DNA of 31,202 nucleotides from Utricularia gibba. Its lineage: Eukaryota > Streptophyta > Magnoliopsida > Lamiales > Lentibulariaceae. The notes under the pieces were generated by a model, which ran no database searches, was not told where the DNA came from, and saw only the letters and a list, made by a program, of their open reading frames with translations. Below, in pieces: positions 8,568 through 30,876 of the stretch. Numbering within the stretch: position 1 is the stretch's first letter; each line of letters opens with the position of its first letter. Both the position numbers and the translations under genes were made by a program. The stretch is taken from positions 1 to 31,202 of the forward strand of contig NEEC01000331.1 in NCBI GenBank assembly GCA_002189035.1. Direction: 5' to 3'.

Positions 8568-8605
8568 CGCTGCACGCACGTTGACAACCCGATGGCGTGC
8601 CGCAT

Positions 8606-8950: not shown

Positions 8951-11900
8951 GGGTTTCACGTGGAACCGACGCGCGCGCCGCTGCACGCACGTTGACAACC
9001 CGATGGCGTGCCGCATAAAGAAGAAAAAGAAAAGAAAAAAAAAAAAAAGGGATGCAACACGAGGACTTCCCAGGGTTAGAAAATTCGGTGTGCCACGAGG
9101 GCAAGAGGGGTTTTCACGTGGCCGACGCGCGCGCCGCTGCACGCACGTTGACAACCGATGGCGTGCCGCATAAAGAAGAAAAAGAAAAAGAAAAAAAAAA
9201 AAGGGATGCAACACGAGGACTTCCCAGGGGTTAGAAAATTCGGTGTGCCACGAGGGCAAGAGGGGTTTTCACGTGGCACCGACGCGCGCGCCGCTGCACA
9301 CGCACGTTGACAACCCGATGGCGTGCCGCATAAGAAGAAAAAAAAAAAGAAAAAAAAAAAAAGGGATGCAACACGAGGACTTCCCAGGGGTTAGAAAATT
9401 CGGTGCCACGAGGGCAAGAGGGGTTTTCACGTGGCGACGCGCGCGCCGCTGCACGCACGTTGACAACCCGATGGCGTGCGCATAAAGAAGAAAAAGAAAA
9501 AGAAAAAAAAAAAAAAGGGATGCAACACGAGGACTTCCAGGGGTTAGAAAATTCGGTGTGCCACGAGGGCAAGAGGGGTTTTCACGTGGCACCGACGCGC
9601 GCGCGCTGCACGCACGTTGACAACCCGATGGCGTGCCGCATAAAGAAAAAAGAAAAAGAAAAAAAAAAAAAAAGGGGATGCAACACGAGGACTTCCCAGG
9701 GGGTTAGAAAATTCGGTGTGCCACGAGGGCAAGAGGGGTTTTCACGTGGCGACGCGCGCGCCGCTGCACGCACGTTGACAACCCGATGGCGTGCCGCATA
9801 AAGAAGAAAAAGAAAAGAAAAAAAAAAAAAGGGATGCAACACGCTTCCAGGGGGTTAGAAAATTCGGTGTGCCACGAGGGCAAGAGGGTTTTCACGTGTG
9901 CAAGTTGACAACCCGATGGCGTGCCATAAAGAAAAAAGAAAAAGAAAAAAAAAAAAAAAGGGATGCAACACGAGGACTTCCCAGGGGGTTAGAAAATTCG
10001 GTGTGCACGAGGGCAAGAGGGGTTTTCACGTGGGACGCGCGCGCCGCTGCACGCACGTTGACAACCGATGGCGTGCCGCATAAAGAAGAAAAAGAAAAAG
10101 AAAAAAAAAAAAAGGGATGCAACACGAGGACTTCCCAGGGGGTTAGAAAATTCGGTGTGCACGAGGGCAAGAGGGGTTTTCACGTGGACCGACGCGCGCG
10201 CCGCTGCACGCACGTTGACAACCGATGGCGTGCCGCATAAAGAAAAAAAAGAAAAAGAAAAAAAAAAAAAAAAGGGATGCAACACGAGGACTTCCCAGGG
10301 GGTTAGAAAATTCGGTGTGCCCACGTGTGTGCACGCACGTTGACAACCCGATGGCGTGCCGCATAAAGAAGAAAAAGAAAAAAAAAAAAAAAAAGGGATG
10401 CAACACGTGGACTTCCAGGGGGTTAGAAAATTCGGTGTGCCACGAGGGCAAGAGGGGTTTTCACGTGGCACCGACGCGCGCGCCGCTGCACGCACGTTGA
10501 CAACCCGATGGCGTGCCGCATAAAGAAGAAAAAGAAAAGAAAAAAAAAAAAAAGGGATGCAACACGAGGACTTCCAGGGGGTTAGAAAATTCGGTGTGCC
10601 ACGAGGGCAAGAGGGGTTTTCACGTGGACGCGCGCGCCGCTGCAGCACGTTGACAACCCGATGGCGTGCCGCATAAAGAAAAAAAAAAGAAAAAAAAAAA
10701 AAAAAGGGGATGCAACACGAGGACTTCCAGGGGGTTAGAAAATTCGGTGTGCCACGAGGGCAAGAGGGGTTTCACGTGGCACCGACGCGCGCGCCGCTGC
10801 ACGCACGTTGACAACCCGATGGCGTGCCGCATAAAGAAGAAAAAGAAAAAGAAAAAAAAAAAAAGGGATGCAACACGAGGACTTCCCAGGGGGTTAGAAA
10901 ATTCGGTGTGCCACGAGGGCAAGAGGGGTTTTCACGTGGCACCGACGCGCGCGCCGCTGCACGCACGTTGACAACCCGATGGCGTGCCGCATAAAGAAAA
11001 AAAAGAAAAAGAAAAAAAAAAAAAAGGGGATGCAACACGAGGACTTCCAGGGGTTAGAAAATTCGGTGTGCCACGAGGGCAAGAGGGGTTTTCACGTGGC
11101 ACCGACGCGCGCCGCCGCTGCACGCACGTTGACCCGATGGCGTGCCGCATAAAGAAGAAAAGAAAAAGAAAAAAAAAAAAAAGGGATGCAACACGAGGAC
11201 TTCCAGGGGGTTAGAAAATTCGGTGTGCCACGAGGGCAAGAGGGGTTTTCACGTGGCCGACGCGCGCGCCGCTGCACGCACGTTGACAACCCGATGGCGT
11301 GCCGCATAAAGAAAAAAAAGAAAAAGAAAAAAAAAAAAAAAGGGATGCAACACGAGGACTTCCCAGGGGGTTAGAAAATTCGGTGTGCCACGAGGGCAAG
11401 AGGGGTTTTCACGTGGCACCGACGCGCGCGCCGCTGCACGCACGTTGACAACCCGATGGCGTGCCGCATAAAGAAGAAAAAGAAAAAGAAAAAAAAAAGG
11501 GATGCAACACGAGGACTTCCAGGGGTTAGAAAATTCGGTGCCACGAGGGCAAGAGGGGTTTTCACGTGGCACCGACGCGCGCGCGCTGCACGCACGTTGA
11601 CAACCGATGGCGTGCAAAAAGAAGAAAAAGAAAAAGAAAAAAAAAAAGGGATGCAACACGAGGACTTCCAGGGGTTAGAAAATTCGGTGTGCCACGAGGG
11701 CAAGAGGGGTTTTCACGTGGCACCGACGCGCGCGCCGCTGCACGCACGTTGACAACCCGATGGCGTGCCGCATAAAGAAAAAGAAAAAGAAAAAAAAAAA
11801 AAAAGGGGATGCAACACGAGGACTTCCCAGGGGGTTAGAAAATTCGGTGTGCCACGAGGGCAAGAGGGGTTTTCACGTGGAACCGACGCGCGCGCCGCTG

Positions 11901-14900
11901 CACGCACGTTGACAACCCGATGGCGTGCCGCATAAAGAAGAAAAAGAAAAAGAAAAAAAAAAAAGGGATGCAACACGAGGACTTCCCAGGGGGTTAGAAA
12001 ATTCGGTGTGCCACGAGGGCAAGAGGGGTTTTCACGTGGCACCGACGGCGCGCCGCTGCACGCGTTGACAACCGATGGCGTGCCGCATAAAGAAGAAAAA
12101 GAAAAGAAAAAAAAAAAAGGGATGCAACAGGACTTCCCAGGGGGTTAGAAAATTCGGTGTGCACGAGGGCAAGAGGGGTTTTCACGTGGCACCGACGCGC
12201 GCGCCGCTGCACGCACGTTGACAACCCGATGGCGTGCCGCATAAAGAAGAAAAAGAAAAAGAAAAAAAAAAAAAGGGATGCAACACGAGGACTTCCCAGG
12301 GGTTAGAAAATTCGGTGTGCCACGAGGGCAAGAGGGGTTTTCACGTGGCACGACGCGCGCGCCGCTGCACGCACGTTGACAACCCCGATGGCGTGCCGCA
12401 TAAAGAAAAAAAAGAAAAAAAAAAAAAAAAAAGGATGCAACGAGACTTCCAGGGGGTTAGAAAACGGTGTGCCACGAGGGCAAGAGGGGTTTTCACGTGG
12501 CACCGACGCGCGCGCCGCTGCACGCACGTTGACAACCCGATGGCGTGCCGCATAAAGAAGAAAAAGAAAAAGAAAAAAAAAAAAAAGGGATGCAACACGA
12601 GGACTTCCCAGGGGGTTAGAAAATTCGGTGTGCCACGAGGGCAAGAGGGGTTTTCACGTGGCACCGACGCGCGCGCGCGCACGCGTTGACAACCGATGGC
12701 GTGCATAAAGAAAAAAAAGAAAAAGAAAAAAAAAAAAAAGGGGATGCAACACGAGGACTTCCCAGGGGGTTAGAAAATTCGGTGTGCCGAGGGCAAGAGG
12801 GGTTTTCACGTGGCACCGACGCGCGCGCCGCTGCACGCACGTTGACAACCCGATGGCGTGCCGCATAAAGAAGAAAAAGAAAAAGAAAAAAAAAAAAAAG
12901 GGATGCAACACGAGGACTTCCAGGGGTTAGAAAATTCGGTGTGCCACGAGGGCAAGAGGGGTTTTCACGTGGCACCGACGCGCGCGCCGCTGCACGCACG
13001 TTGACAACCCGATGGCGTGCCGCATAAAGAAAAAAAAGAAAAAAAAAAAAAAAAAAGGGATGCAAACGAGGACTTCCCAGGGGTTAGAAAATTCGGTGTG
13101 CCACGAGGGCAAGAGGGGTTTTCACGTGGCCGACGCGCGCGCCGCTGCACGCACGTTGACAACCCGATGGCGTGCCGCATAAAGAAGAAAAAGAAAAAGA
13201 AAAAAAAAAAAGGGATGCAACACGAGGACTTCCCAGGGGGTTAGAAAATTCGGTGTGCACGAGGGCAAGAGGGGTTTTCACGTGGACGCGCGCGCCGCTG
13301 CACGCACGTTGACAACCCGATGGCGTGCCGCATAAAGAAGAAAAAGAAAAGAAAAAAAAAAAAAGGGATGCAACACGAGGACTTCCCAGGGGTTAGAAAA
13401 TTCGGTGTGCCACGAGGGCAAGAGGGGTTTTCACGTGGCACCGACGCGCGCGCCGCTGCACGCACGTTGACAACCCGATGGCGTGCCGCATAAAGAAGAA
13501 AAAGAAAAAGAAAAAAAAAAAAAAGGGATGCAAACGAGGACTTCCAGGGGTTAGAAAATTCGGTGTGCCACGAGGGCAAGAGGGGTTTTCACGTGGCACC
13601 GACGCGCGCGCCGCTGCACGCACGTTGACAACCGATGGCGTGCCGCATAAAGAAGAAAAAGAAAAAAAAAAAAAAAAAAAAGGGATGCAACACGAGGACT
13701 TCCCAGGGGTTAGAAAATTCGGTGTGCCACGAGGGCAAGAGGGGTTTTCACGTGGCACCGACGCGCGCGCCGCTGCACGCACGTTGACAACCCGATGGCG
13801 TGCCGCATAAAGAAGAAAAAGAAAAAGAAAAAAAAAAAAGGGATGCAACACGAGGACTTCCGGGGGTTAGAAAATTCGGTGTGCCACGAGGGCAAGAGGG
13901 GTTTTCACGTGGCAACGCGCGCGCCGCTGCACGCACGTTGACAACCGATGGCGTGCCGCATAAAGAAAAAAAAGAAAAAGAAAAAAAAAAAAAGGGATGC
14001 AACACGAGGACTTCCCAGGGGGTTAGAAAATTCGGTGTGCCACGAGGGCAAGAGGGTTTTTCACGTGGCGACGCGCGCGCCGCTGCACGCACGTTGAGAT
14101 GGCGTGCCGCATAAAGAAAAAAAGAAAAAGAAAAAAAAAAAAAGGGATGCAACACGAGGACTTCCCAGGGGGTTAGAAAATTCGGTGTGCCACGAGGGCA
14201 AGAGGGGTTTTCACGTGTGCGCGCCGCTGCACGCACGTTGACCCGATGGCGTGCCGCATAAAGAAAAAAAGAAAAAGAAAAAAAAAAAAAAGGGATGCAA
14301 CACGAGGACTTCCCAGGGGGTTAGAAAATTCGGTGTGCCACGAGGGCAAGAGGGTTTTCACGTGGCCGACGCGCGCGCCGCTGCACGCACGTTGACAACC
14401 GATGGCGTGCCGCATAAAGAAGAAAAAGAAAAAAAAAAAAAAAAAGGGATGCAACACGCTTCCAGGGGGTTAGAAAATTCGGTGTGCCACGAGGGCAAGA
14501 GGGGTTTTCACGTGGCACCGACGCGCGCGCGCTGCAACGACAACCCGATGGCGTGCCGGAAGAAAAAGAAAAAAAAAAAAAAGGGATGCAACACGAGGAC
14601 TTCCCAGGGGTTAGAAATTCGGTGTGCACGAGGGCAAGAGGGGTTTTCACGTGGCACCGACGCGCGCGCCGCTGCACGCACGTTGACAACCCGATGGCGT
14701 GCCGCATAAAGAAGAAAAAGAAAAAGAAAAAAAAAAAAAAGGGATGCAACACGAGGACTTCCCAGGGGGTTAGAAAATTCGGTGTGCCACGAGGGCAAGA
14801 GGGGTTTTCACGTGGCACCGACGCGCGCCGCTGCACGCACGTTGACAACCGATGGCGTGCCGCATAAGAAGAAAAAAAAGAAAAAAAAAAAAAAAAGGGA

Positions 14901-15930
14901 TGCAACACGAGGACTTCCCAGGGGGTTAGAAAATTCGGTGTGCCACGAGGGCAAGAGGGGTTTTCACGTGGCACCGACGCGCGCGCCGCTGCACGCACGT
15001 TGACAACCCGATGGCGTGCCGCATAAAGAAAAAAAAGAAAAAGAAAAAAAAAAAAAGGGATGCAACACGCCAGGGGGTTAGAAAATTCGGTGTGCCACGA
15101 GGGCAAGAGGGGTTTTCACGTGGAACCGACGCGCGCGCCGCTGCACGCACGTTGACAACCGATGGCGTGCCGCATAAAGAAGAAAAAGAAAAAGAAAAAA
15201 AAAAAAAGGGATGCAACACGAGGACTTCCCAGGGGGTTAGAAAATTCGGTGTGCCACGAGGGCAAGAGGGGTTTTCACGTGGCACCGACGCGCGCCGCTG
15301 CACGCACGTTGACAACCGATGGCGTGCCGCATAAAGAAAAAAAAGAAAAAGAAAAAAAAAAAAAAAGGGATGCAACACGAGGACTTCCCAGGGGGTTAGA
15401 AAATTCGGTGTGCCACGAGGGCAAGAGGGGTTTTCACGTGGAACGACGCGCGCGCCGCTGCACGCACGTTGACAACCCGATGGCGTGCCGCATAAAGAAG
15501 AAAAAGAAAAAGAAAAAAAAAAAAAGGGATGCAACACGAGGACTTCCCAGGGGGTTAGAAAATTCGGTGTGCCACGAGGGCAAAGGGGTTTTCACGTGGC
15601 ACCGACGCGCGCCGCTGCACGCACGTTGACAACCCGATGGCGTGCCGCATAAAGAAGAAAAAGAAAAAGAAAAAAAAAAAAAAAAGGGATGCAACACGAG
15701 GACTTCCAGGGGTTAGAAAATTCGGTGTGCCACGAGGGCAAGAGGGGTTTTCACGTGCACCGACGCGCGCGCCGCTGCCGCACGTTGACAACCGATGGCG
15801 TGCCGCATAAAGAAGAAAAAGAAAAAGAAAAAAAAAAAAAGGGATGCAACACGAGGACTTCCAGGGGGTTAGAAAATTCGGTGTGCCACGAGGGCAAGAG
15901 GGGTTTTCACGTGGCACCGACGCGCGCGCG

Positions 15931-16008
15931 CCCCCACGAAAAAAAAAAAAAAAAAAAAAAAACGTGGTAACGGGGCAAAAAACAAGCTGAAACGAAAGAA
16001 TTTTTCCC
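15931..16008. other. Unique 78-bp interruption with a pure A24 run
   Basis: Satellite sequence stops inside the CG core (CGCGCGCGCG) and is replaced by CCCCCACG, 24 uninterrupted A, CGTGGTAACGGGG, CAAAAAACAAGCTGAAACG, and AAAGAATTTTTCCCA. Normal unit sequence resumes at CACGAGGGCAAG (about 16009). The A run is flanked by CCACG and CGTGG, an exact 5-bp inverted repeat. The A run lacks the interrupting G residues of the normal purine tract. It does not match the long-form inserts at 18790-20992. Its origin is not recognised; an insertion with an A tail, a foreign fragment captured during repair, or an assembly junction are all possible. Confidence 0.65.
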
Positions 16009-18789
16009 ACACGAGGGCAAGACGTGGCACCGACGCGCGCCGCTGCACGCACGTTGACAACCGATGGCGTGCCGCATAAAAAAAAAAGAAAAAGAAAAAA
16101 AAAAAAAAGGGATGCAACACGAGGACTTCCCAGGGGTTAGAAAATTCGGTGTGCCACGAGGGCAAGAGGGGTTTTCACGTGGACCGACGCGCGCGCCGCT
16201 GCACGCACGTTGACAACCCGATGGCGTGCCGCATAAAGAAGAAAAAGAAAAAGAAAAAAAAAAAAAGGGATGCAACACGAGGACTTCCCAGGGGGTTAGA
16301 AAATTCGGTGTGCACGAGGGCAAGAGGGGTTTTCACGTGGCACCGACGCGCGCGCCGCTGCACGCACGTTGACAACCCGATGGCGTGCCGCATAAAGAAA
16401 AAAAAAAAAAGAAAAAAAAAAAAAAAGGGATGCAACACGAGGACTTCCCAGGGGGTTAGAAAATTCGGTGTGCCACGAGGGCAAGAGGGGTTTTCACGTG
16501 GACCGACGCGCGCGCGCTGCACGCACGTTGACAACCCGATGGCGTGCCGCATAAAGAAGAAAAAGAAAAAGAAAAAAAAAAAAAGGGATGCAACACGTGG
16601 ACTTCCAGGGGGTTAGAAAATTCGGTGTGCCACGAGGGCAAGAGGGGTTTTCACGTGGCACCGACGCGCGCGCCGCTGCACGCACGTTGACAACCGATGG
16701 CGTGCCGCATAAAGAAAAAAAGAAAAAGAAAAAAAAAAAAAAGGGATGCAACACGAGGACTTCCCAGGGGTTAGAAAATTCGGTGTGCCACGAGGGCAAG
16801 AGGGGTTTTCACGTGGCACCGACGCGCGCGCGCTGCTGCACGTTGACAACCCGATGGCGTGCCGCATAAAGAAGAAAAAGAAAAAAAAAAAAAAAAAAAG
16901 GGATGCAACACGAGGACTTCCCAGGGGGTTAGAAAATTCGGTGTGCCACGAGGGCAAGAGGGGTTTTCACGTGGCACGACGCGCGCGCGCCGCTGCACGC
17001 ACGTTGACAACCGATGGCGTGCCGCATAAAGAAGAAAAAAAAAGAAAAAAAAAAAAAGGGATGCAACACGAGGACTTCCAGGGGTTAGAAATTCGGTGTG
17101 CCACGAGGGCAAGAGGGGTTTTCACGTGGCACCGACGCGCGCGCCGCTGCATTGACAACCGATGGCGTGCCGCATAAAGAAAAAAAAGAAAAAAAAAAAA
17201 AAAAAAAGGGATGCAACACGAGGACTTCCAGGGGGTTAGAAAATTCGGTGTGCCACGAGGGCAAGAGGGGTTTTCACGTTGCCCGGCCCGCGACGCACGT
17301 TGAGATGGCGTGCCGCATAAAGAAGAAAAAGAAAAAGAAAAAAAAAAAAAAAGGGATGCAACACGAGGACTTCCCAGGGGGTTAGAAATTCGGTGTGCCA
17401 CGAGGGCAAGAGGGGTTTTCACGTGGCCCGACGCGCGCGCCGCTGCACGCACGTTGAAACCCGATGGCGTGCCGCATAAAGAAAAAAAAAAAGAAAAAAA
17501 AAAAAAAGGGATGCAACACGAGGACTTCCAGGGGGTTAGAAATTCGGTGTGCACGAGGGCAAGAGGGGTTTTCACGGCCGACGCGCGCCGCTGCACGCAC
17601 GTTGACAACCCGATGGCGTGCCGCATAAAGAAGAAAAAGAAAAAGAAAAAAAAAAAAGGGATGCAACACGAGGACTTCCCAGGGGTTAGAAAATTCGGTG
17701 TGCCACGAGGGCAAGAGGGGTTTTCACGTGGCACCGACGCGCGCGCGCCGCTGCACGCACGTTGACAACCCGATGGCGTGCCGCATAAAGAAGAAAAAGA
17801 AAAAAAAAAAAAAAAAAAGGGATGCAACACGAGGACTTCCCAGGGGTTAGAAAATTCGGTGTGCCACGAGGGCAAGAGGGGTTTTCACGTGCACGACGCG
17901 CGCCGCTGCACGCACGTGGCCGATGGCGTGCCGCATAAAGAAGAAAAAGAAAAAGAAAAAAAAAAAAAGGGATGCAACACGTGGACTTCCAGGGGGTTAG
18001 AAAATTCGGTGTGCCACGAGGGCAAGAGGGGTTTTCACGTGGCACCGACGCGCGCGCCGCTGCACGCACGTGGATGGCGTGCCGCATAAAGAAAAAAAGA
18101 AAAAGAAAAAAAAAAAAAGGGATGCAACACGAGGACTTCCCAGGGGTTAGAAAATTCGGTGTGCCACGAGGGCAAGAGGGTTTCACGTGGCACCGACGCG
18201 CGCGCCGCTGCAGCGCACGTTGACAACCCGATGGCGTGCCGCATAAAGAAGAAAAAGAAAAAGAAAAAAAAAAAAGGGATGCAACACGAGGACTTCCCAG
18301 GGGTTAGAAAATTCGGTGTGCCACGAGGGCAAGAGGGGTTTTCACGTGGCACCGACGCGCGCGCCGCTGCACGCACGTTGACAACCGATGGCGTGCCGCA
18401 TAAAGAAAAAAAAGAAAAAGAAAAAAAAAAAAAAAGGGATGCAACACGTGGACTTCCCAGGGGGTTAGAAAATTCGGTGTGCACGAGGGCAAGAGGGGTT
18501 TTCACGTGGCACCGACGCGCGCGCCGCTGCACGCACGTTGACAACCCGATGGCGTGCCGCATAAAGAAGAAAAGAAAAAAAGAAAAAAAAAAAAGGGATG
18601 CAACACGTGGACTTCCCAGGGGGTTAGAAAATTCGGTGTGCCACGAGGGCAAGAGGGGTTTTCACGTGGCACCGACGCGCGCGCCGCTGCACGCACGTTG
18701 ACAACCCGATGGCGTGCCGCATAAAGAAGAAAAAGAAAAAGAAAAAAAAAAAAAAAGGGATGCAACACGAGGACTTCCCAGGGGGTTAG
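16009..18789. repeat. Satellite block B (~17-18 monomers)
   Basis: Regular units between the A24 interruption and the first long-form segment. The first copy is shortened (CAAGACGTGGCACC). Units with a second CACGTG at unit position 10-15 become frequent here (16594, 17978, 18445, 18604). One copy at 17277-17300 has a divergent core (CGTTGCCCGGCCCGCGACG). The last unit runs to CCCAGGGGGTTAG (18777-18789), where the first insert begins. Confidence 0.9.
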
Positions 18790-19017
18790 GGGGAGTTATG
18801 GGAATTAATGACGCAACCGATCGCGCGACCAAGTGAGGAAGCGACGCTTTGATCCGCAAGCACCCGCATCGTTTCGAAGCTCCTTTGGGCTCGCTTGTGG
18901 AGCACGAAACGATGCTGCGTCCCTCGAAACGCAGCCGCACGGGGGACGACGCAGCAGCGGCGGCGCGTGACGAAGACCGCGATCAGCGAAGATGCGAACG
19001 GATGGGCATGTGGGAGG
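18790..19017. repeat. Long-form insert 1 (228 bp)
   Basis: Non-satellite sequence lies exactly between CCCAGGGGGTTAG and TAGAAAATTCGG. Blocks shared with the other inserts: TGGGAATTAA (insert 4); GACGCTTTGATCCGC at 18843-18857 (insert 2); GCATCGTTTCGAAG and CGAAACGATGCTGCGT (insert 2); CGCAGCCGCACGGGGG and ACGACGCAGCAGCGGCG (insert 3); GCGATCAGCGA (inserts 2 and 3). It is therefore one member of a diverged family. A frame from the ATG at 18912 reads MLRPSKRSRTGDD followed by Ala, Arg and Asp-rich residues. That frame is not kept in the related copies and runs into satellite, so I do not call a gene. Confidence 0.85.
18866..18915. repeat. Two-step hairpin in insert 1
   Basis: GCATCGTTTCG (18866-18876) and CGAAACGATGC (18905-18915) are exact 11-bp inverted repeats. 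Inside them GCTCC (18879-18883) pairs with GGAGC (18899-18903), leaving a 15-base loop and a small asymmetric AA/A internal bulge. The outer arms recur exactly in insert 2 with a different inner stem. Confidence 0.75.
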
Positions 19018-19177
19018 TAGAAAATTCGGTGTGCCACGAGGGCAAGAGGGGTTTTCACGTGGCACCGACGCGCGCGCCGCTGCACGCACGTTGACAACCC
19101 GATGGCGTGCCGCATAAAGAAAAAAAGAAAAGAAAAAAAAAAAAAAAGGGATGCAACACGAGGACTTCCCAGGGGGT
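19018..19177. repeat. Single monomer between inserts 1 and 2
   Basis: A complete unit of 160 bp, from TAGAAAATTCGG through the purine tract to CCCAGGGGGT, bounded on both sides by long-form insert. Together with insert 1 it makes a long repeat unit of about 388 bp. Confidence 0.9.
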
Positions 19178-19372
19178 GGCCAATGGGATGGGGTGCACTG
19201 GCGCACCCGATTGGTGCGCGCGATGAGGCGTCAACAGACGCTTTGATCCGCGTGAAGCACCGCGCATCGTTTCGAAGGAGCCCGACGCAGGGGCTTAGCA
19301 CGAAACGATGCTGCGTTGACGAAGAGATGTTCGCGATCAGCGAAGATGCCACGAGACGGGATGGCAAGAGAC
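19178..19372. repeat. Long-form insert 2 (195 bp)
   Basis: Lies between CCCAGGGGGT and TAGAAAATTCGG, the same phase as insert 1. It has CCAATGGG near its left end and GCGCACCCGATTGGTG at 19201-19216, which contains ATTGG (CCAAT box on the other strand). It also has GACGCTTTGATCCGC (19237-19251), GCATCGTTTCGAAG, CGAAACGATGCTGCGT, GACGAAGAGATGTTCGCG and ATCAGCGAAGATG. Compared with insert 1 it lacks the CGCAGCCGCACGGGGG and ACGACGCAGCAGCGG blocks; GCGT at the edges of the missing piece suggests a direct-repeat deletion. No maintained reading frame. Confidence 0.85.
19264..19311. repeat. Two-step hairpin in insert 2
   Basis: GCATCGTTTCG (19264-19274) and CGAAACGATGC (19301-19311) are exact 11-bp inverted repeats. 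An inner stem AGCCC (19279-19283) with GGGCT (19291-19295) encloses a 7-base loop. The inner stem sequence differs from that of insert 1, yet a stem is possible in both. Confidence 0.75.
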
Positions 19373-20471
19373 TAGAAAATTCGGTGTGCCACGAGGGCAA
19401 GAGGGGTTTTCACGTGGCACCGACGCGCGCGCCGCTGCACGCACGTTGACAACCCGATGGCGTGCCGCATAAAGAAGAAAAAGAAAAAGAAAAAAAAAAA
19501 GGGATGCAACACGTGGACTTCCCAGGGTTTAGAAAATTCGGTGTGCCACGAGGGAAAGAGGGTTTTCACGTGCACGACGCGCGCGCCGCTGCAGCACGTT
19601 GACAACCCGATGGCGTGCCGCATAAAGAAGAAAAAGAAAAAAAAAAAAAAAAGGGATGCAACACGTGGACTTCCAGGGGGTTAGAAAATTCGGTGTGCCA
19701 CGAGGGCAAGAGGGGTTTTCACGTGGCACCGACGCGCGCGCCGCTGCACGCACGTTGACAACCCGATGGCGTGCCGCATAAAGAAGAAAAAGAAAAAGAA
19801 AAAAAAAAAGGGATGCAACACGTGGACTTCCAGGGGTTAGAAAATTCGGTGTGCCACGAGGGCAAGAGGGGTTTTCACGTGGCACGACGCGCGCGCCGCT
19901 GCACGCACGTTGACAACCCGATGGCGTGCCGCATAAAGAAGAAAAAGAAAAAGAAAAAAAAAAAAAAAGGGATGCAACACGAGGACTTCCCAGGGGTTTA
20001 GAAAATTCGGTGTGCCACGAGGGCAAGAGGGTTTTCACGTGGCACCGACGCGCGCGCCGCTGCACGCACGTTGACAACCCGATGGCGTGCGCATAAAGAA
20101 GAAAAAGAAAAAGAAAAAAAAAAAAGGGATGCAACACGAGGACTTCCCAGGGGGTTAGAAAATTCGGTGTGCCACGAGGGCAAGAGGGGTTTTCACGTGG
20201 CACCGACGCGCGCGCCGCTGCACGCACGTTGACAACCCGATGGCGTGCCGCATAAAGAAGAAAAAGAAAAAGAAAAAAAAAAAGGGATGCAAACGTGGAC
20301 TTCCCAGGGGGTTAGAAAATTCGGTGTGCCGAGGGCAAGAGGGGTTTTCACGTGGCACCGACGCGCGCGCCGCTGCACGCACGTTGACAACCCGATGGCG
20401 TGCCGCATAAAGAGAAAAAGAAAAAAAAAAAAAAAAAAAAAGGGATGCAACACGAGGACTTCCCAGGGGGT
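19373..20471. repeat. Satellite block C (7 monomers)
   Basis: About seven regular units between the two insert pairs. Several carry a second CACGTG at unit position 10-15 (19510, 19662, 19819). One further unit at about 20288 has the same A-to-T change with a neighbouring deletion (AAACGTGG). The final unit has GCATAAAGAGAAAAAG, a slightly different start to its purine tract. Confidence 0.9.
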
Positions 20472-20693
20472 CAGCCCAAAGCAAACTTCGGTGCCGGTGC
20501 ACTGCGTTGCGCGCGACAACATGCGTCGAAGCATAATTTCAGACCGGACGCGTGAAGCACCGCGCAAAGCGAGACGGGGCTCGCTTGGTGGAGCAAGAAC
20601 GAAAACGCAGCCGCACGGGGGGACGACGCAGCAGCGGCGCGGCGTGACGAAAGATGTTCGCGATCAGCGAGGATGGGCATTGGCAACTTGAGA
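20472..20693. repeat. Long-form insert 3 (222 bp)
   Basis: Lies between CCCAGGGGGT and AGAAAATTCGG. Shared blocks: GGTGCACTG and CGTGAAGCACCGCGC (insert 2); ACATGCGTCG (insert 4); GGGCTCGCTTG (insert 1); CGCAGCCGCACGGGG and ACGACGCAGCAGCGGCG (insert 1); GATGTTCGCGATCAGCGA (insert 2); ACTTGAGAAGAAA (insert 4). It therefore links the other three. GCATAATTTCAGACCGGACG appears unique to it. A short frame from 20654 reads MFAISEDGHWQLEKK and then enters satellite; indels relative to the other copies break any common frame. Confidence 0.85.
20567..20586. repeat. 7-bp hairpin in insert 3
   Basis: AAGCGAG (20567-20573) and CTCGCTT (20580-20586) are exact inverted repeats with a 6-base ACGGGG loop. 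It lies in the region aligned to the hairpins of inserts 1 and 2, but uses different arms, because the GCATCGTTTCG arm is not present here. Confidence 0.6.
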
Positions 20694-20854
20694 AGAAAAT
20701 TCGGTGTGCCACGAGGGCAAGAGGGGTTTTCACGTGGCACCGACGCGCGCGCCGCTGCACGCACGTTGACAACCCGATGGCGTGCCGCATAAAGAAGAAA
20801 AAGAAAAAAAAAAAAAAAAAAAAAGGGATGCAACACGAGGACTTCCCAGGGGGT
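20694..20854. repeat. Single monomer between inserts 3 and 4
   Basis: One complete 161-bp unit from AGAAAATTCGG to CCCAGGGGGT, bounded by inserts 3 and 4. It mirrors the single monomer at 19018-19177 between inserts 1 and 2. Confidence 0.9.
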
Positions 20855-20992
20855 GTAAGCTTTTGGGAATTAACGCACCCGATTGGTGTTGACATGCGTC
20901 GTGCAAAGCGGCGGCGTTAAAGAACGGGGGCAACGAAACGAAAAAGCCGCACGATGACGAAGAAGAATGAAATGGAGACGGGAAAACTTGAG
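20855..20992. repeat. Long-form insert 4 (138 bp, shortest)
   Basis: Lies between CCCAGGGGGT and AGAAATTCGG. Left part: AAGCTTTTGGGAATTAACG then CACCCGATTGGTG (shared with inserts 1 and 2). Middle: GACATGCGTCGTGCAAAGCG (shared in part with insert 3). Right: ACGAAACG, GCCGCACGATGACGAAG and ACTTGAGAAG (inserts 1 and 3). It keeps both ends of the family but has lost most of the centre, including the hairpin region. Confidence 0.82.
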
Positions 20993-21285
20993 AAGAAATT
21001 CGGTGTGCCACGAGGGCAAGAGGGGTTTTCACGTGGCACCGACGCGCGCGCCGCTGCACGCACGTTGACAACCCGATGGCGTGCCGCATAAAGAAGAAAA
21101 AAAAAAGAAAAAAAAAAAAAGGGATGCAACACGAGGACTTCCCAGGGGGTTAGAAAATTCGGTGTGCCACGAGGGCAAGAGGGGTTTTCACGTGGCACGA
21201 CGCGCGCGCCGCTGCACGCACGTTGACAACCCGATGGCGTGCCGCATAAAGAAAAAAGAAAAAGAAAAAAAAAAAAGGGATGCAA

Positions 21286-22792
21286 CACGTGGACTTCCCA
21301 GGGGGTTAGAAAATTCGGTGTGCCGAGGGCAAGAGGGGTTTTCACGTGGCACCGACGCGCGCGCCGCTGCACGCACGTTGACAACCCGATGGCGTGCCGC
21401 ATAAAGAAGAAAAAGAAAAAAAAAAAAAAAAAAAGGGATGCAACACGTGGACTTCCCAGGGTTAGAAAATTCGGTGTGCCACGAGGGCAAGAGGGGTTTT
21501 CACGTGGCACCGACGCGCGCGCCGCTGCACGCACGTTGCCCGATGGCGTGCCGCATAAAGAAGAAAAAGAAAAAGAAAAAAAAAAAAGGGATGCAACACG
21601 TGGACTTCCCAGGGGGTTAGAAAATTCGGTGTGCCACGAGGGCAAGAGGGGTTTTCACGTGGCACGACGCGCGCGCCGCTGCACGCACGTTGACAACCCG
21701 ATGGCGTGCCGCATAAAGAAGAAAAAAGAAAAAAAAAAAAAAAAGGGATGCAACACGAGGACTTCCCAGGGGGTTAGAAAATTCGGTGTGCCACGAGGGC
21801 AAGAGGGGTTTTCACGTGCACTGCACGCACGTTGACAACCCGATGGCGTGCCGCATAAAGAAGAAAAAGAAAAAAAAAAAAAAAGGGATGCAACACGTGG
21901 ACTTCCCAGGGGGTTAGAAAATTCGGTTGCCACGAGGGCAGAGGGGTTTTCACGTGGCAACCGCTGCACGCACGTTGACAACCCGATGGCGTGCCGCATA
22001 AAGAAGAAAAGAAAAAAGAAAAAAAAAAAAGGGATGCAACACGGGACTTCCAGGGGGTTAGAAAATTCGGTGTGCCACGAGGGCAAGAGGGGTTTCACGT
22101 GGCACCGACGCGCGCGCCGCTGCACGCACGTTGACAACCCGATGGCGTGCCGCATAAAGAAGAAAAAGAAAAAGAAAAAAAAAAAAGGGATGCAACACGT
22201 GGACTTCCCAGGGGGTTAGAAAATTCGGTGTGCAACGAGGGCAAGAGGGGTTTCACGTGGCACCGACGCGCGCGCTGCACGCACGTTGACAACCCGATGG
22301 CGTGCCGCATAAAGAAAAAAAAAAAAGAAAAAAAAAAAAAAAGGGATGCAACACGAGGACTTCCCAGGGGTTAGAAAATTCGGTGTGCACGAGGGCAAGA
22401 GGGTTTTCACGTTGCACGCACGTTGACAACCCGATGGCGTGCCGCATAAAGAAGAAAAAGAAAAAGAAAAAAAAAAAAAGGGATGCAACACGTGGACTTC
22501 CCAGGGGGTTAGAAAACGAGGGCAAGAGGGGTTTTCACGTGGCACACGCGCGCGCCGCTGCACCGTTGACAACCGATGGCGTGCCGCATAAAGAAGAAAA
22601 AGAAAAGAAAAAAAAAAAAAGGGATGCAACACGTGGACTTCCCAGGGGGTTAGAAAATTCGGTGTGCCACGAGGGCAAGAGGGGTTTTCACGTGGCACGA
22701 CGCGCGCGCCGCTGCACGCACGTTGACAACCCGATGGCGTGCCGCATAAAGAAGAAAAAGAAAAAGAAAAAAAAAAAGGGATGCAACACGTG
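21286..22792. repeat. Run of two-CACGTG monomers
   Basis: Nine units here read CAACACGTGGACTT instead of CAACACGAGGACTT, creating a second CACGTG 59 bp upstream of the usual one. Positions: 21286, 21444, 21597, 21894, 22196, 22489, 22630 and 22787, with further copies at 23401, 23842, 24414 and 24569 just beyond and 16594-19819 before. A single A-to-T change shared by so many neighbours marks local amplification or gene conversion. Confidence 0.85.
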
Positions 22793-24179
22793 GACTTCCA
22801 GGGGGTTAGAAAATTCGGTGTGCCACGAGGGCAAGAGGGGTTTTCACGTGGCACCGACGCGCGCGCCGCTGCACGCACGTTGACAACCCGATGGCGTGCC
22901 GCATAAAGAAGAAAAAGAAAAAGAAAAAAAAAAAAGGGATGCAACAAATTCCCAGGGGTTAGAAATTCGGTGTGCAACGAGGCAAGAGGGGTTTTCACGT
23001 GCACCGACGCGCGCGCCGCTGCACGCACGTTGACAACCGAATAAAGAAGAAAAAGAAAAAGAAAAAAAAAAAAAAGGATGCAACACGAGGACTTCCAGGG
23101 GGTTAGAAAATTCGGTGTGCCACGAGGGCAAGAGGGGTTTTCACGTGGCACGACGCGCGCGCCGCTGCACGCACGTTGACAACCCGATGGCGTGCCGCAT
23201 AAAGAAGAAAAGAAAAAGAAAAAAAAAAAAAGGGATGCAACACGAGGACTTCCCAGGGGGTTAGAAAATTCGGTGTGCACGAGGGCAAGAGGGGTTTTCA
23301 CGTGGCACCGACGCGCGCGCCGCTGCACGCACGTTGACAACCCGATGGCGTCCGCATAAAGAAGAAAAAGAAAAAGAAAAAAAAAAAAAAAGGGATGCAA
23401 CACGTGGACTTCCCAGGGGGTTAGAAAATTCGGTGTGCCACGAGGGCAAGAGGGTTTTCACGTGGCACGACGCGCGCGCCGCTGCACGCACGTTGACAAC
23501 CGATGGCGTGCCGCATAAAGAAGAAAAAGAAAAAGAAAAAAAAAAAAGGGATGCAGGACTTCCCAGAGAAAATTCGGTGTGCCACGAGGGCAAGAGGGGT
23601 TTTCACGTGGCACCGACGCGCGCGCCGCTGCACGCACGTTGACAACCCGATGGCGTGCCGCATAAAGAAGAAAAAAAAAAGAAAAAAAAAAAGGAATGCA
23701 ACACGAAGGGGGTTAGAAAATTCGGTGTGCCACGAGGGCAAGAGGGTTTCACGTGACGCGCGCGCCGCTGCACGCACGTTGACAACCCGATGCGTGCCGC
23801 ATAAAGAAGAAAAGAAAAAGAAAAAAAAAAAAGGGATGCAACACGTGGACTTCCAGGGGGTTAGAAATTCGGTGTGCAACGAGGGCAAGAGGGGTTTTCA
23901 CGTGGCACGACGCGCGCGCCGCTGCACGCACGTTGACAACCCGATGGCGTGCCGCATAAAGAAGAAAAAGAAAAAGAAAAAAAAAAAGGGATGCAACACG
24001 GACTTCCCAGGGGTTAGAAAATTCGGTGTGCCACGAGGGCAAGAGGGGTTTTCACGTGGACCGACGCGCGCGCGCCACGCACGTTGACAACCCGATGGCG
24101 TGCCGCATAAAGAAAAAGAAAAAGAAAAAAAAAAAAAAGGGATGCAACACGAGGACTTCCAGGGGTTAGAAAATTCGGT

Positions 24180-24222
24180 GTGCCACGAGGCAAGAGGGGT
24201 TTACGTGGTTGTGCCGCATAAA
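24180..24222. repeat. Monomer lacking the CG core
   Basis: GGGGTTTACGTGGTTGTGCCGCATAAAG joins the CACGTG region (here TACGTGG) to GTGCCGCATAAAG, removing roughly 45 bases including the CG core and GTTGACAACCCGATGG. Confidence 0.75.
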
Positions 24223-27200
24223 GAAGAAAAAGAAAAAGAAAAAAAAAAAAAAGGGATGCAACACTTCCCAGGGGGTTAGAAAATTCGGTGTGCCACGAGG
24301 GCAAGAGGGGTTTTCACGTGGCACCGCGCGCGCGCCGCTGCACGCACGTTGACAACCCGATGGCGTGCCGCATAAAGAAGAAAAAGAAAAAGAAAAAAAA
24401 AAAAGGGATGCAACACGTGGACTTCCCAGGGGGTTAGAAAATTCGGTGTGCCACGAGGGCAAGAGGGGTTTCACGTGCCGACGCGCGCGCGCTGCACGCA
24501 CGTTGACAACCCGATGGCGTGCCGCATAAAGAAGAAAAAGAAAAAGAAAAAAAAAAAAAGGGATGCAACACGTGGACTTCCCAGGGGGTTAGAAATTCGG
24601 TGTGCCACGAGGGCAAGAGGGGTTTTCACGTGGACCGACGCCGCGCCGCTGCACGCACGTTGACAACCCGATGGCGTGCCGCATAAAGAAGAAAAAGAAA
24701 AAAGAAAAAAAAAAAAGGGATGCAACACGAGGACTTCCCAGGGGTTAGAAAATTCGGTGTGCCACGAGGGCAAGAGGGTTTTCACGTGGCACCGACGCGC
24801 GCGCCGCTGCCGCACGTTGACAACCGATGGCGTGCCGCATAAAGAAAAAAAAGAAAAAGAAAAAAAAAAAAAGGGATGCAACACGAGGACTTCCAGGGGG
24901 TTAGAAAATTCGGTGTGCCACGAGGGCAAGAGGGGTTTTCACGTGGCACCGAGCGCGCGCCGCTGCACGCACGTTGACAACCCGATGGCGTGCCGCATAA
25001 AGAAGAAAAAGAAAAAGAAAAAAAAAAAAGGGATGCAACACGAGGACTTCCCAGGGGGTTAGAAAATTCGGTGTGCAACGAGGGCAAGAGGGGTTTTCAC
25101 GTGGCACCGACGCGCGCGCCGCTGCACGCACGTTGACAACCCGATGGCGTGCCGCATAAAGAAGAAAAAGAAAAGAAAAAAAAAAAAAAGGGATGCAACA
25201 CGAGGACTTCCCAGGGGGTTAGAAAATTCGGTGTGCCACGAGGGCAAGAGGGGTTTTCACGTGGCACCGACGCGCGCGCCGCTGCACGCACGTTGACAAC
25301 CCGATGGCGTGCCGCATAAAGAAGAAAAAGAAAAAAAAAAAAAAAAAAAGGGATGCAACACGAGACTTCCCAGGGGTTAGAAAATTCGGTGTGCCACGAG
25401 GGCAAGAGGGTTTTCACGTGGCACCGACGCGCGCGCCGCTGCACGCACGTTGACAACCCGATGGCGTGCCGCATAAAGAAGAAAAAGAAAAAGAAAAAAA
25501 AAAAAAGGGATGCAACGAGGACTTCCCAGGGGTTAGAAAATTCGGTGTGCCACGAGGGCAAGAGGGGTTTTCACGTGGCACCGACGCGCGCGCGCTGCAC
25601 GCACGTTGACACCCGATGGCGTGCCGCATAAAGAAGAAAAAGAAAAAAAAAAAAAAAAAAAGGGATGCAACACGAGGACTTCCCAGGGGGTTAGAAAATT
25701 CGTGTGCCACGAGGGCAAGAGGGGTTTTCACGTGGCACCGACGCGCGCGCCGCTGCACCACGTTGACAACCCGATGGCGTGCCGCAAAAGAAAAAAGAAA
25801 AAGAAAAAAAAAAAAAGGGATGCAACACGAGGACTTCCCAGGGGGTTAGAAAATTCGGTGTGCCACGAGGGCAAGAGGGGTTTTCACGTGGCACCGACGC
25901 GCGCGCCGCTGCACGCACGTTGACAACCCGATGGCGTGCCGCATAAAGAAAAAAAAAGAAAAAGAAAAAAAAAAAGGGGATGCAACACGAGGACTTCCCA
26001 GGGGGTTAGAAAATTCGGTGTGCCACGAGGGCAAGAGGGGTTTTCACGTGGCACCGACGCGCGCGCCGCTGCACGCACGTTGACAACCCGATGGCGTGCC
26101 GCATAAAGAAGAAAAAGAAAAAGAAAAAAAAAAAAAGGGATGCAACACGAGGACTTTCCCAGGGGGTTAGAAAATTCGGTGTGCCACGAGGGCAAGAGGG
26201 GTTTTCACGTGGCACCGACGCGCGCGCCGCTGCACGCACGTTGACAACCCGATGGCGTGCCGCATAAAGAAGAAAAAGAAAAAGAAAAAAAAAAAAAGGG
26301 ATGCAACACGAGGACTTCCCAGGGGGTTAGAAAATTCGGTGTGCCACGAGGGCAAGAGGGGTTTTCACGTGGCACCGACGCGCGCGCCGCTGCACGCACG
26401 TTGACAACCCGATGGCGTGCCGCATAAAGAAAAAAAGAAAAAAAAAAAAAAGGGATGCAACACGTGGACTTCCAGGGGGTTAGAAAATTCGGTGCCACGA
26501 GGGCAAGAGGGTTTTCACGTGGCACCGACGCGCGCGCCGCTGCACGCACGTTGACACCCGATGGCGTGCCGCATAAAGAAGAAAAAGAAAAAGAAAAAAA
26601 AAAAAAGGATGCAACACGAGGACTTCCCAGGGGTTAGAAAATTCGGTGTGCCACGAGGGCAAGAGGGGTTTTCACGTGGCACCGACGCGCGCGCCGCTGC
26701 ACGCACGTTGACAACCCGATGGCGTGCCGCATAAAGAAAAAAAGAAAAAAAAAAAAGGGATGCAACACGAGGACTTCCAGGGGTTAGAAAATTCGGTGTG
26801 CCACGGGGCAAGAGGGTTTTCACTGGCACGACGCGCGTGCACGCACGTTGACAACCCGATGGCGTGCCGCATAAAGAAGAAAAAGAAAAAGAAAAAAAAA
26901 AAGGGATGCAACACGGGACTTCCCAGGGGGTTAGAAAATTCGGTGTGCCACGAGGGGAGGGGTTTCACGTGGCACCGACGCGCGCGCCGCTGCACGCACG
27001 TTGACAACCCGATGGCGTGCCGCATAAAGAAGAAAAAGAAAAAGAAAAAAAAAAAGGGATGCAACACGAGGACTTCCCAGGGGTTAGAAAATTCGGTGTG
27101 CCACGAGGCAAGAGGGGTTTTCACGTGGCACCGACGCGCGCGCCGCTGCACGCACGTTGACAACCGATGGCGTGCCGCATAAAGAAGAAAAGAAAAAGAA

Positions 27201-29039
27201 AAAAAAAAAAGGGATGCAACGAGGACTTCCCAGGGGGTTAGAAAATTCGGTGTGCCACGAGGGGGGGTTTTCACGTGGCACCGACGCGCGCGCCGCTGCA
27301 CGCACGTTGACAACCATGGCGTGCCGCATAAAGAAAAGAAAAAGAAAAAAAAAAAAAAAGGGATGCAACACGAGGACTTCCCAGGGGGTTAGAAAATTCG
27401 GTGTGCCACGAGGGCAAGAGGGGTTTTCACGTGCCGACGCGCGCGCCGCTGCACGCACGTTGACAACCCGATGGCGTGCCGCATAAAGAAGAAAAAGAAA
27501 AAGAAAAAAAAAAAAAAGGGATGCAACACGAGGACTTCCCAGGGGGTTAGAAAATTCGGTGTGCCACGAGGGCAAGAGGGGTTTTCACGTGGCACCGACG
27601 CGCGCGCCGCTGCACGCACGTTGACAACCGATGGCGTGCCGCATAAAGAAGAAAAAGAAAAAAAAAAAAAAAAAAAGGGATGCAACACGAGGACTTCCCA
27701 GGGGGTTAGAAAATTCGGTGTGCCAGGGGCAAAGGGGTTTTCACGTGACCGACGCGCGCGCCGCTGCACCACGTTGACAACCCGATGGCGTGCCGCATAA
27801 AGAAGAAAAAGAAAAAAAAAAAAAAAAGGGATGCAACACGAGGACTTCCCAGGGGTTAGAAATTCGGTGTGCTTTTCACGTGGCACCGACGCGCGCGCCG
27901 CTGCACGCACGTTGACAACCCGATGGCGTGCCGCATAAAGAAGAAAAAGAAAAAGAAAAAAAAAAAAGGGATGCAACACGGACTTCCCAGGGGGTTAGAA
28001 AATTCGGTGTGCCACGAGGGCAAGAGGGGTTTTCACGTGGCACCGACGCGCGCGCCGCTGCACGCACGTTGACAACCCGATGGCGTGCCGCATAAAGAAG
28101 AAAAGAAAAAGAAAAAAAAAAAGGGATGCAACACGAGGACTTCCCAGGGGGTTAGAAAATTCGGTGTGCCACGAGGGCAAGAGGGGTTTTCACGTGGCAC
28201 CGACGCGCGCGCCGCTGCACGCACGTTGACAACCCGATGGCGTGCCGCATAAAGAAGAAAAAGAAAAAAAAAAAAAAAAAGGGATGCAACACTTCCCAGG
28301 GGGTTAGAAAATTCGGTGTGCCACGAGGGCAAGAGGGTTTTCACGTGGCACCGACGCGCGCGCCGCTGCACGCACGTTGACAACCCGATGGCGTGCCGCA
28401 TAAAGAAGAAAAGAAAAAGAAAAAAAAAAAAGGGATGCAACACGAGGACTTCCCAGGGGTTTAGAAAATTCGGTGCCACGAGGGCAAGAGGGGTTTTCAC
28501 GTGGCACCGACGCGCGCGCCGCTGCACGCACGTTGACAACCCGATGGCGTGCCGCATAAAGAAGAAAAAGAAAAGAAAAAAAAAAAAGGGATGCAACACG
28601 TGGACTTCCCAGGGGTTAGAAAATTCGGTGTGCCACGAGGGCAAGAGGGGTTTTCACGTGGCACCGACGCGCGCGCCGCTGCACGCACGTTGTGGCGTGC
28701 CGCATAAAGAAGAAAAAGAAAAAGAAAAAAAAAAAAAAGGGATGCAACACGAGGACTTCCCAGGGTTAGAAAATTCGGTGTGCCACGAGGGCAAGAGGGG
28801 TTTTCACGTGGACCGACGCGCGCGCCGCTGCACGCACGTTGACAACCCGATGGCGTGCCGCATAAAGAAGAAAAAGAAAAAGAAAAAAAAAGGGATGCAA
28901 CACGAGGACTTCCCAGGGGGTTAGAAAATTCGGTGTGCCACGAGGGCAAGAGGGTTTTGGCACCGACGCGCGCGCCGCTGCACGCACGTTGACAACCCGA
29001 TGGCGTGCCGCATAAAGAAGAAAAAGAAAAAAAAAAAAA

Positions 29040-29400
29040 AAAAGGGATGCAACACGACTTCGGGGGTTAGAAAATTCGGTGTGCCACGAGGCAAGGGGTT
29101 TTCACGTGGCACCGACGCGCGCGCCGCTGCACGCACGTTGACAACCCGATGGTGCCGCATAAGAAAAAAAAAGAAAAAAAAAAAAAAGGGATGCAACACG
29201 AGGACTTCCCAGGGGGTTAGAAAATTCGGTGCCACGAGGGCAAGAGGGCACGTGTGCACGCACGTTGAGGCGTGTAAAGAAAAAGAAAAAGAAAAAAAAA
29301 AAAAAAGGGATGCAACACGAGGAACGGTGTGCACGAGGGCAAGAGGGTTTTCACGTGGACGCGCGCGCCGCTGCACGCACGTTGACAACCGATGGCGTGC
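29040..29400. repeat. Cluster of heavily deleted monomers
   Basis: Consecutive units read CACGACTTCGGGGGTTAG (29053-29070), GAGGCAAGGGGTTTTC, GATGGTGCCGCATAAG, AGAGGGCACGTGTGCACGC (29244-29262), TTGAGGCGTGTAAAG and CACGAGGAACGGTGTGC. Several independent deletions in about 360 bp, well above the local background, suggest a decayed patch or poor consensus in the assembly. Confidence 0.7.
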
Positions 29401-30856
29401 CGCATAAAGAAAAAAGAAAAAGAAAAAAAAAAAAAAGGGATGCAACACGAGGACTTCCAGGGGTTAGAAAATTCGGTGTGCCACGAGGGCAAGAGGGGTT
29501 TTCACGTGGCACCGACGCGCGCGCCGCTGCACGCACGTTGACAACCCGATGGCGTGCCGCATAAAGAAGAAAAAGAAAAAGAAAAAAAAAAAAAAAAGGG
29601 ATGCAACACGAGGACTTCCAGGGGGTTAGAAAATTCGGTGTGCCACGAGGGCAAGAGGGGTTTCACGTGGCACCGACGCGCGCGCCGCTGCACGCACGTT
29701 GACAACCCGATGGCGTGCCGCATAAAGAAGAAAAAGAAAAAGAAAAAAAAAAAAAAGGGATGCAACACGTGGACTTCCCAGGGGGTTAGAAAATTCGGTG
29801 TGCCACGAGGGCAAGAGGGGTTTTCACGTGGACCGACGCGCGCGCGCTGCACGCACGTTGACAACCCGATGGCGTGCCGCATAAAGAAGAAAAAGAAAAA
29901 GAAAAAAAAAAAAAGGGATGCAACACGAGGACTTCCCAGGGGGTTAGAAAATTCGGTGTGCCACGAGGGCAAGAGGGGTTTTCACGTGCTGCAACGTTGA
30001 CAACCCGATGGCGTGCCGCATAAAGAAGAAAAAGAAAAAGAAAAAAAAAAAAAAGGGGATGCAACACGAGGACTTCCAGGGGTTAGAAATTCGGTGTGCC
30101 ACGAGGGCAAGAGGGTTTCACGTGGCACCGACGCGCGCGCCGCTGCACGCACGTTGACAACCCGATGGCGTGCCGCATAAAGAAGAAAAAGAAAAGAAAA
30201 AAAAAAAAGGGATGCAACACGAGGACTTCCCAGGGGGTTAGAAAATTCGGTGTGCCACGAGGGCAAGAGGGGTTTTCACGTGGCATGCACGCACGTTGAC
30301 AACCCGATGGCGTGCCGCATAAAGAAGAAAAAGAAAAAGAAAAAAAAAAAAGGGATGCAACACGGGACTTCCCAGGGGTTAGAAAATTCGGTGGCCACGA
30401 GGGCAAGAGGGTTTTCACGTGGCACCGACGCGCGCGCCGCTGCACGCACGTTGACAACCGATGGCGTGCCGCATAAGAGAAGAAAAAGAAAAAAAAAAAA
30501 AAAAAAGGATGCAACACGAGGACTTCCCAGGGGTTAGAAAATTCGGTGTGCCACGAGGGCAAGAGGGGTTTTCACGTGGCACCGACCGCGCGCCGCTGCA
30601 CGCACGTTGACAACCCGATGGCGTGCCGCATAAAGAAGAAAAAAAAAAGAAAAAAAAAAAAAGGATGCAACACGAGGACTTCCCAGGGGGTTAGAAAATT
30701 CGGTGTGCCACGAGGCAAGAGGGGTTTTCACGTGGCACCGACGCGCGCGCCGCTGCACGCACGTTGACCCGATGGCGTGCGCATAAAGAAGAAAAGAAAA
30801 AGAAAAAAAAAAAAAGGATGCAACACGAGGACTTCCCAGGGGTTAGAAAATTCGGT

Positions 30857-30876
30857 GTGCCACGTTTTCGTGGCAC
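30857..30876. repeat. Deletion leaving a near-perfect hairpin
   Basis: GTGCCACG TTTT CGTGGCAC: the 15-base AGGGCAAGAGGGG..CA part of the usual 19-base loop is gone, bringing the two conserved 8-base arms together around a TTTT loop. Both arms are intact. This is what a deletion across an extruded hairpin would leave. Confidence 0.75.

What the first reader, a model, noticed from the sequence alone, without database searches (positions are those of the whole stretch)
18790..20992. A long-form repeat unit hidden in the satellite: four related inserts at one fixed phase
Seen: four segments of 228, 195, 222 and 138 bp share many blocks with one another, and all sit between CCCAGGGGGT and AGAAAATTCGG. 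Same ends and same phase mean they are not independent insertions. Inference: either an ancestral long unit (about 385 bp or more) existed and the abundant ~160 bp satellite is its deletion derivative, or one insertion into a monomer was then amplified. The greater divergence among inserts than among short monomers favours the long form being the older, relic state.
Basis: partly seen in the sequence, partly recalled or inferred. Interest (0 to 1): 0.8.

Follow-up and report, generated by a model that had tools for sequence, protein, structure and literature searches.

The report
Gene-less satellite from 5S ribosomal DNA
The repeated DNA here is a shortened copy of the genome's own 5S ribosomal RNA gene repeat that lost most of the gene, and the four odd 'inserts' are remnants of the full repeat, probably eaten into by assembly errors rather than by age.

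Summary
In detail: four segments (231, 195, 222, 139 bp) sit between the same two satellite arms and are versions of one sequence. They are pieces of the 5S ribosomal RNA gene repeat. The same genome carries arrays of a ~547 bp unit (consensus 549 bp) with a full 119-nt 5S gene (Rfam RF00001). The window's ~160 bp satellite is that unit minus one clean 386 bp block; it keeps only the last 30 nt of the gene, the poly-T terminator and part of the spacer. The inserts are remnants of the missing 386 bp. The inserts' 'divergence' is mostly deletions (105-108 events against 5-7 substitutions at three of four alignment settings; 76 against 40 at the fourth), mostly without microhomology. Genuine relics elsewhere show mainly substitutions. 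In contig C255, deletions in the same satellite rise about sevenfold away from unique DNA. I read the chewing as a long-read consensus artefact over longer, perhaps intact, 5S units; no reads were available to prove it. C255 also shows the satellite ending in one diverged, nearly full 5S unit.

The parts
1..31202 (-). Satellite array, the whole contig C243; 190 units by tolerant splitting, median 157 bp; strand given is that of the 5S gene remnant in each monomer
   Evidence: TRF; splitting; exact junction GGTTAGAAAATTCGGTG 164 times in the window
18757..18786 (-). Left arm of the first insert-bearing unit: last 30 nt of the 5S rRNA gene (gene nt 90-119), the only gene part kept in ordinary satellite monomers
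   Evidence: Identity to consensus positions 1-30; gene bounds from Rfam RF00001
18787..19017 (-). Insert 1: remnant of the 386 bp block missing from satellite monomers (5S gene nt 1-89 plus upstream spacer); about 60% of positions kept; 26 deletions and 3 substitutions at three settings, 21 and 8 at the fourth
19018..19147 (-). Right arm of the same unit: spacer and A-rich tract (poly-T terminator on the gene strand); matches the 5S arrays except for three one-base gaps in the A-rich tract
19178..19372 (-). Insert 2: same block, about 51% kept; 19-23 deletions, 1-4 substitutions over the four settings
19501..20441 (-). Six ordinary short satellite monomers between the two pairs of insert-bearing units
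   Evidence: unit starts
20472..20693 (-). Insert 3: same block, about 57% kept; 25 deletions, 1 substitution and 1 inserted base at three settings, 20 deletions and 9 substitutions at the fourth
20855..20993 (-). Insert 4: same block, about 36% kept; 34 deletions and 0 substitutions at three settings, 16 and 19 at the fourth

Best explanation
A 5S rDNA repeat of about 547 bp lost one contiguous 386 bp block (5S gene nt 1-89 and the spacer upstream of it) by a blunt deletion. The resulting ~160 bp unit was amplified into a satellite that carries no usable 5S gene. The window is part of that satellite, and the four 'inserts' mark positions where full or near-full 5S units sit among the short ones, in two adjacent pairs. 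In this assembly those units are riddled with deletions because the consensus was built from reads that mostly carried the short unit. Shown: identity of the long unit, exact breakpoints, split gene, colinearity, deletion-dominated difference, array edge in C255. Inferred: single origin of the short unit, amplification by unequal exchange or rolling circles, and the assembly cause of the deletions. The satellite most likely has no coding or transcriptional role (inference).
For: Long-unit arrays at periods of 527-548 bp, 95-99% match; 19 Rfam 5S rRNA hits on 4 of 6 loci searched. Joining consensus positions 1-30 to 417-549 gives the satellite junction letter for letter. 228 exact short junctions in the genome (of which 100 were listed): 164 in the window and 64 at the end of C255, which adds up. 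Long junction: 62 exact copies on C222, C223, C224, C227 and C229. Inserts: 105-108 deletion events, 5-7 substitutions, 779-781 matches at three settings; the C244 relic has 35-44 substitutions with 6-12 gap events, the C1 relic 14-20 with 0-3, the C255 edge unit 12-15 with 3-6, over all four settings. Fisher p 7e-20 against the C244 relic and 3e-9 against the C255 edge unit, at one setting. 63 of 75 deletions of 3 bp or more have no microhomology; mean 0.19 against 0.71 for random placement. In C255 the same satellite has 0.57 deletions per monomer nearest unique DNA (n=21) and 3.82 farther away (n=60), while substitutions go from 1.0 to 0.07 (the cut at 9.2 kb was set after seeing the bins). 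A toy consensus of mixed long and short reads can yield a chewed insert (limits under evidence against).
Against: No raw reads were available, so the artefact is inferred. With a mismatch-friendly setting (-1, gap open -4) the inserts show 40 substitutions to 76 deletions, 19 of the substitutions in insert 4. The toy simulation fits only in part: where 23-65% of the block is kept it gave 45-93 deletion events, against 16-34 per insert observed; it cannot show substitutions, by construction; with linear gaps the arms also lost 5-20% of their bases, unlike the real arms; with affine gaps the arms stayed whole but the chewing appeared only near an even mix of reads. The A-to-T variant at unit position 14 clusters around the inserts (17 of 23 T units lie in 17.5-24.5 kb), so the region has real structure and might be a distinct domain. 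A misjoin of 5S-array reads with satellite reads is not excluded.
Confidence: 0.74

Rival explanations
1. The deletions in the inserts are real: old 5S units inside the satellite decayed after losing selection.
For: Four units differ from one another and from the 5S arrays far more than the short monomers do; seven identical deletions are shared between pairs of inserts.
Against: 5-7 substitutions against 105-108 deletions at three of four settings; genuine relics (C244, C1, C255 edge unit) have mainly substitutions. Arms of the same units are nearly perfect. 63 of 75 longer deletions lack microhomology. Of the seven shared deletions three are single bases.
Confidence: 0.1
2. Misassembly: reads from the 5S arrays and from the satellite were merged, and no molecule carries 5S units inside this satellite at these places.
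For: Contig C243 is satellite from end to end, and I found no unique anchor in it; at all 12 kept cells of the diagnostic sites inside the block the inserts match the canonical 5S unit, not the diverged C255 edge unit.
Against: C255, which runs on into other sequence, does carry satellite joined to a 5S unit, though only at the array edge.
Confidence: 0.15
3. One foreign insertion into a satellite monomer was amplified.
For: Same ends and same phase in 4 of 4 inserts.
Against: The insert is continuous with the 5S gene whose last 30 nt lie in the arm, and the uninterrupted unit forms the genome's 5S arrays.
Confidence: 0.01

Closest known systems
PLsatB of Plantago lagopus B chromosome
   Same: Plant satellite that arose from amplification including 5S rDNA fragments (passages of the review PMC6210368; the original paper, Kumke et al. 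2016, was seen only as a reference).
   Different: PLsatB is described as B-specific; here one array ends on a 3.4 Mb contig. I did not compare sequences.
PcP190 satellite of frogs
   Same: Satellite related to 5S rDNA, unit about 190 bp (start of abstract of PMC11675491).
   Different: PcP190 has a conserved 120 bp region like the transcribed part of 5S rDNA; this satellite keeps 30 nt of the gene and is mostly spacer. Sequences not compared.
5S-derived centromeric satellite of the fish Hoplias malabaricus
   Same: Tandem satellite derived from 5S rDNA (reference title in PMC12692304).
   Different: Fish; structure not compared here.
Truncated 5S copies in Tribolium
   Same: 5S copies with a 30-base deletion at one end of the gene inside 5S clusters (passages of PMC11202950).
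   Different: Those are described as pseudogenes within 5S clusters; here the short unit forms its own long array.

Membership tests
5S rDNA repeat (long unit) | Complete 5S rRNA gene in each tandem unit | tested here: met
   RF00001 hits up to 113.5 bits, model 1-120, in C224 and elsewhere; 18 of 19 hits cover the whole model; ~547 bp period
5S rDNA-derived satellite (window's short unit) | Tandem unit made of 5S rDNA sequence | tested here: met
   Unit equals consensus positions 1-30 plus 417-549 of the 5S repeat; 178 of 190 window units (12 longer than 175 bp left out) average 0.26 substitutions from it over 131 bp
5S rDNA-derived satellite (window's short unit) | Array separate from the functional 5S arrays | tested here: inconclusive
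   228 of 228 exact short junctions are on C243 and C255, 62 of 62 exact long junctions on C222, C223, C224, C227 and C229. But much of those five contigs is withheld, and the inserts themselves suggest some mixing
Functional 5S gene (window's short unit) | Complete gene with internal promoter | tested here: not met
   No Rfam hit in the window at gathering scores; only gene nt 90-119 kept. Positions of the plant promoter boxes (about nt 50-97) are recalled
Decayed relic of 5S rDNA (inserts) | Substitutions accumulate along with indels | tested here: not met
   5-7 substitutions to 105-108 deletions at three settings; 40 to 76 at the fourth, still far from the relics' ratio
Centromeric satellite | Bound by the centromeric histone, at centromeres | not testable with these tools
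   No chromatin or cytological data

The most novel reading that the evidence does not exclude
The chewed inserts are real, and an erosion process acting on silenced 5S units removes DNA in many small, mostly microhomology-free deletions almost without base changes, stopping sharply at the ends of the block that the satellite lacks.
Probability: 0.05. Interest if true: 0.8.

Novelty: new member of a known kind. Interest (0 to 1): 0.35.

Why it matters
It gives a clear case of how a satellite is born from a housekeeping gene array: one 386 bp deletion, exact breakpoints, the parent array still present, and an array edge that keeps a fuller unit. If the genome is that of Utricularia gibba (recalled guess, untested), it is of some note, because a paper speaks of the absence of satellite repeats from that plant's putative centromeric regions (passage in PMC8333044). 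It also warns that deletion-rich 'divergence' in long-read satellite contigs can be mistaken for age.

Tried and rejected
Rejected: a foreign insertion (the insert continues the 5S gene); the long form as relic (the same unit is the genome's 5S repeat); shared deletions as strong evidence of common descent of the inserts (7 identical deletions over six pairs, three of them single bases; overlap of kept positions 1.4-3.3 sd above shifted controls).

Led nowhere: Rfam on the window (no hit at gathering scores). Two odd stretches tested against the long unit with 200 shuffles: 15940-15995 does not stand out (20.2 against 17.3, sd 2.7); 31028-31120 does (29.8 against 9.3, sd 1.4), but the tested piece includes ordinary arm sequence. 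C222 near its end is too scrambled to use: two pieces gave 5 and 9 substitutions with 44 and 19 gap events, mostly insertions against the consensus. Paper searches found no paper. Paper searches listed 4 and 3 papers, none on 5S rDNA or satellites of Utricularia by title and abstract start.

The species is not established. Total size 100.09 Mb and 516 contigs, the 21 contig lengths that I saw and a table giving Utricularia gibba a contig N50 of 3.4 Mb with the HGAP assembler (PMC5793159, passage) fit, but that this is the same assembly is recalled and untested. Against it: a paper names a 6.8 Mb contig of that plant (PMC8333044, passage), and no contig of that length was among the 21.

Full report
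What was checked. The window is the whole contig C243 (31,202 bp) of a 100.09 Mb genome in 516 contigs. It is satellite from end to end, with a period near 158-160 bp; my tolerant splitting gave 190 units, median 157 bp. The four segments are there at 18787-19017, 19178-19372, 20472-20693 and 20855-20993, 231, 195, 222 and 139 bp long, each between the same two arms. They come as two adjacent pairs with six ordinary monomers between the pairs.

What the segments are. Searching the region against its own genome found a related unit in arrays on C222, C223, C224, C227 and C229, with starts about 547 bp apart. Where sequence is not withheld, these arrays have periods of 541-548 bp, and 527 in one stretch of C223, at 95-99% match; no array was called in the end piece of C222. 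Rfam finds 19 5S rRNA hits on 4 of the 6 loci searched, 18 of them over the whole model. I cut 53 units from 12 loci, kept 48 of 530-555 bp, and made a 549 bp consensus. Positions 1-119, read on the minus strand, are the 5S gene. Each of the four segments aligns in order to consensus positions 31-416, 11.5 to 33.7 standard deviations above 200 dinucleotide shuffles, 4 of 4 segments at 4 of 4 settings.

How the satellite unit arose. Joining consensus 1-30 to 417-549 gives the satellite unit and its junction, GGGGGT/TAGAAAATTCGG, letter for letter; 386 bp are missing, and the bases on either side of the two breakpoints show no overlap. The breakpoint splits the 5S gene between nt 89 and 90, so the long unit must be the older. 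The short unit keeps the last 30 nt of the gene, the T-rich terminator behind it and part of the spacer. It has lost most of the positions where plant 5S genes carry their internal promoter (positions recalled, not tested). Of 190 window units, 178 were compared (12 over 175 bp, the four insert units among them, left out): they average 0.26 substitutions over 131 bp from the 5S arrays, and the commonest is A-to-T at position 14 in 23 of 178, so no fixed substitution separates satellite and parent there. That suggests a young origin or continuing exchange; this is inference.

Where the two forms occur. The exact short junction occurs 228 times in the genome (the list stops at 100): 164 in the window and 64 at the left end of C255 (48 in L035 and 16 in L036). 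The exact long junction occurs 62 times, on C222, C223, C224, C227 and C229. These counts are for exact matches in sequence that is not withheld.

The array edge. C255 (3.42 Mb) starts with 81 satellite monomers. At C255:12579-13024 the array ends in one nearly full 5S unit, in the same phase, with 12 substitutions and 81 deleted bases in 6 events at three settings, most of them in one internal loss, and then runs into other sequence. Two further scattered pieces exist: C244 about 1,328,834-1,329,223 and C1 about 2,736,571-2,736,686.

Why the inserts look so different from each other. At three of four alignment settings the four inserts together show 105-108 deletion events and 5-7 substitutions over 779-781 matched bases; at a setting that favours mismatches over gaps, 76 and 40. 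Real relics differ the other way: the C244 piece has 35-44 substitutions with 6-12 gap events, the C1 piece 14-20 with 0-3, the C255 edge unit 12-15 with 3-6. Fisher's test at one setting gives p = 7e-20 against the C244 relic and 3e-9 against the edge unit. Of 75 deletions of 3 bp or more, 63 have no microhomology; the mean is 0.19 base against 0.71 for random placement, which does not look like slippage or microhomology-based joining. The arms of the same units are nearly perfect. Six of the 12 sites where the C255 edge unit differs from the arrays lie inside the block; the inserts keep 12 of those 24 cells and carry the array's base in 12 of 12, so they derive from the ordinary 5S unit.

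Why I read this as artefact. In C255 the same satellite can be followed away from the other sequence at its end. The 21 monomers nearest to it average 0.57 deletions and 1.0 substitutions; the 60 farther ones 3.82 and 0.07 (Mann-Whitney p = 4e-11 and 5e-8; the cut at 9.2 kb was chosen after seeing the bins). Deletions that rise where reads cannot be anchored, while substitutions nearly vanish, suit consensus error, although diverged array edges could add to the substitution difference. The 178 window units average 2.5 deletions, and the 48 long units average 3.5 deletions to 0.46 substitutions in 525 bp. A toy majority consensus over a long unit, from noisy reads of which part carry the short unit, gave chewed inserts. 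It fits only in part: 45-93 events where 23-65% is kept, more than the 16-34 seen per insert; with linear gaps the arms also lost 5-20% of their bases; with affine gaps the arms stayed whole but chewing appeared only near an even mix. It shows that such a pattern can arise, not that it did. If so, the real molecules carry longer, perhaps intact, 5S units at these four places.

Comparison with what is known. Satellites derived from 5S rDNA are known: PLsatB on the B chromosome of Plantago lagopus (review passages, PMC6210368), PcP190 in frogs (abstract start, PMC11675491), a centromeric repeat in Hoplias (reference title). Truncated 5S copies are reported in Tribolium (passages, PMC11202950). 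This one is a new member of that kind. It keeps only 30 nt of the gene, and its one-step deletion can be read exactly beside the parent arrays. My searches listed no paper that describes this satellite, by title and abstract start; they cover open-licence papers only.

Limits. No raw reads, no relatives and no named species were available.

Noticed in passing
window 17500-24500: The A-to-T variant at unit position 14 (GTGGAC for GAGGAC) clusters around the inserts: 17 of the 23 T units lie here, among 35 of the 169 units scored.
   Followed up: partly
window 15929-16000 and 30990-31202: Two scrambled stretches inside the satellite with sequence that is not ordinary monomer; the first does not stand out from shuffles against the 5S unit.
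   Followed up: partly
L036:2579-3024 (C255:12579-13024): Edge of the satellite is a single diverged 5S unit with its own internal deletion, followed by other sequence.
   Followed up: yes
L023:4834-5223 (C244) and L024:4571-4686 (C1): Scattered pieces of 5S repeat: on C244 a stretch 98% like the gene's 3' half beside one 81% like the spacer; on C1 a spacer piece at 83%.
   Followed up: partly
L016:2500-5000 (C222 end): 5S units near this contig end are scrambled, with pieces missing and out of step, as if the assembly were poor there too.
   Followed up: partly
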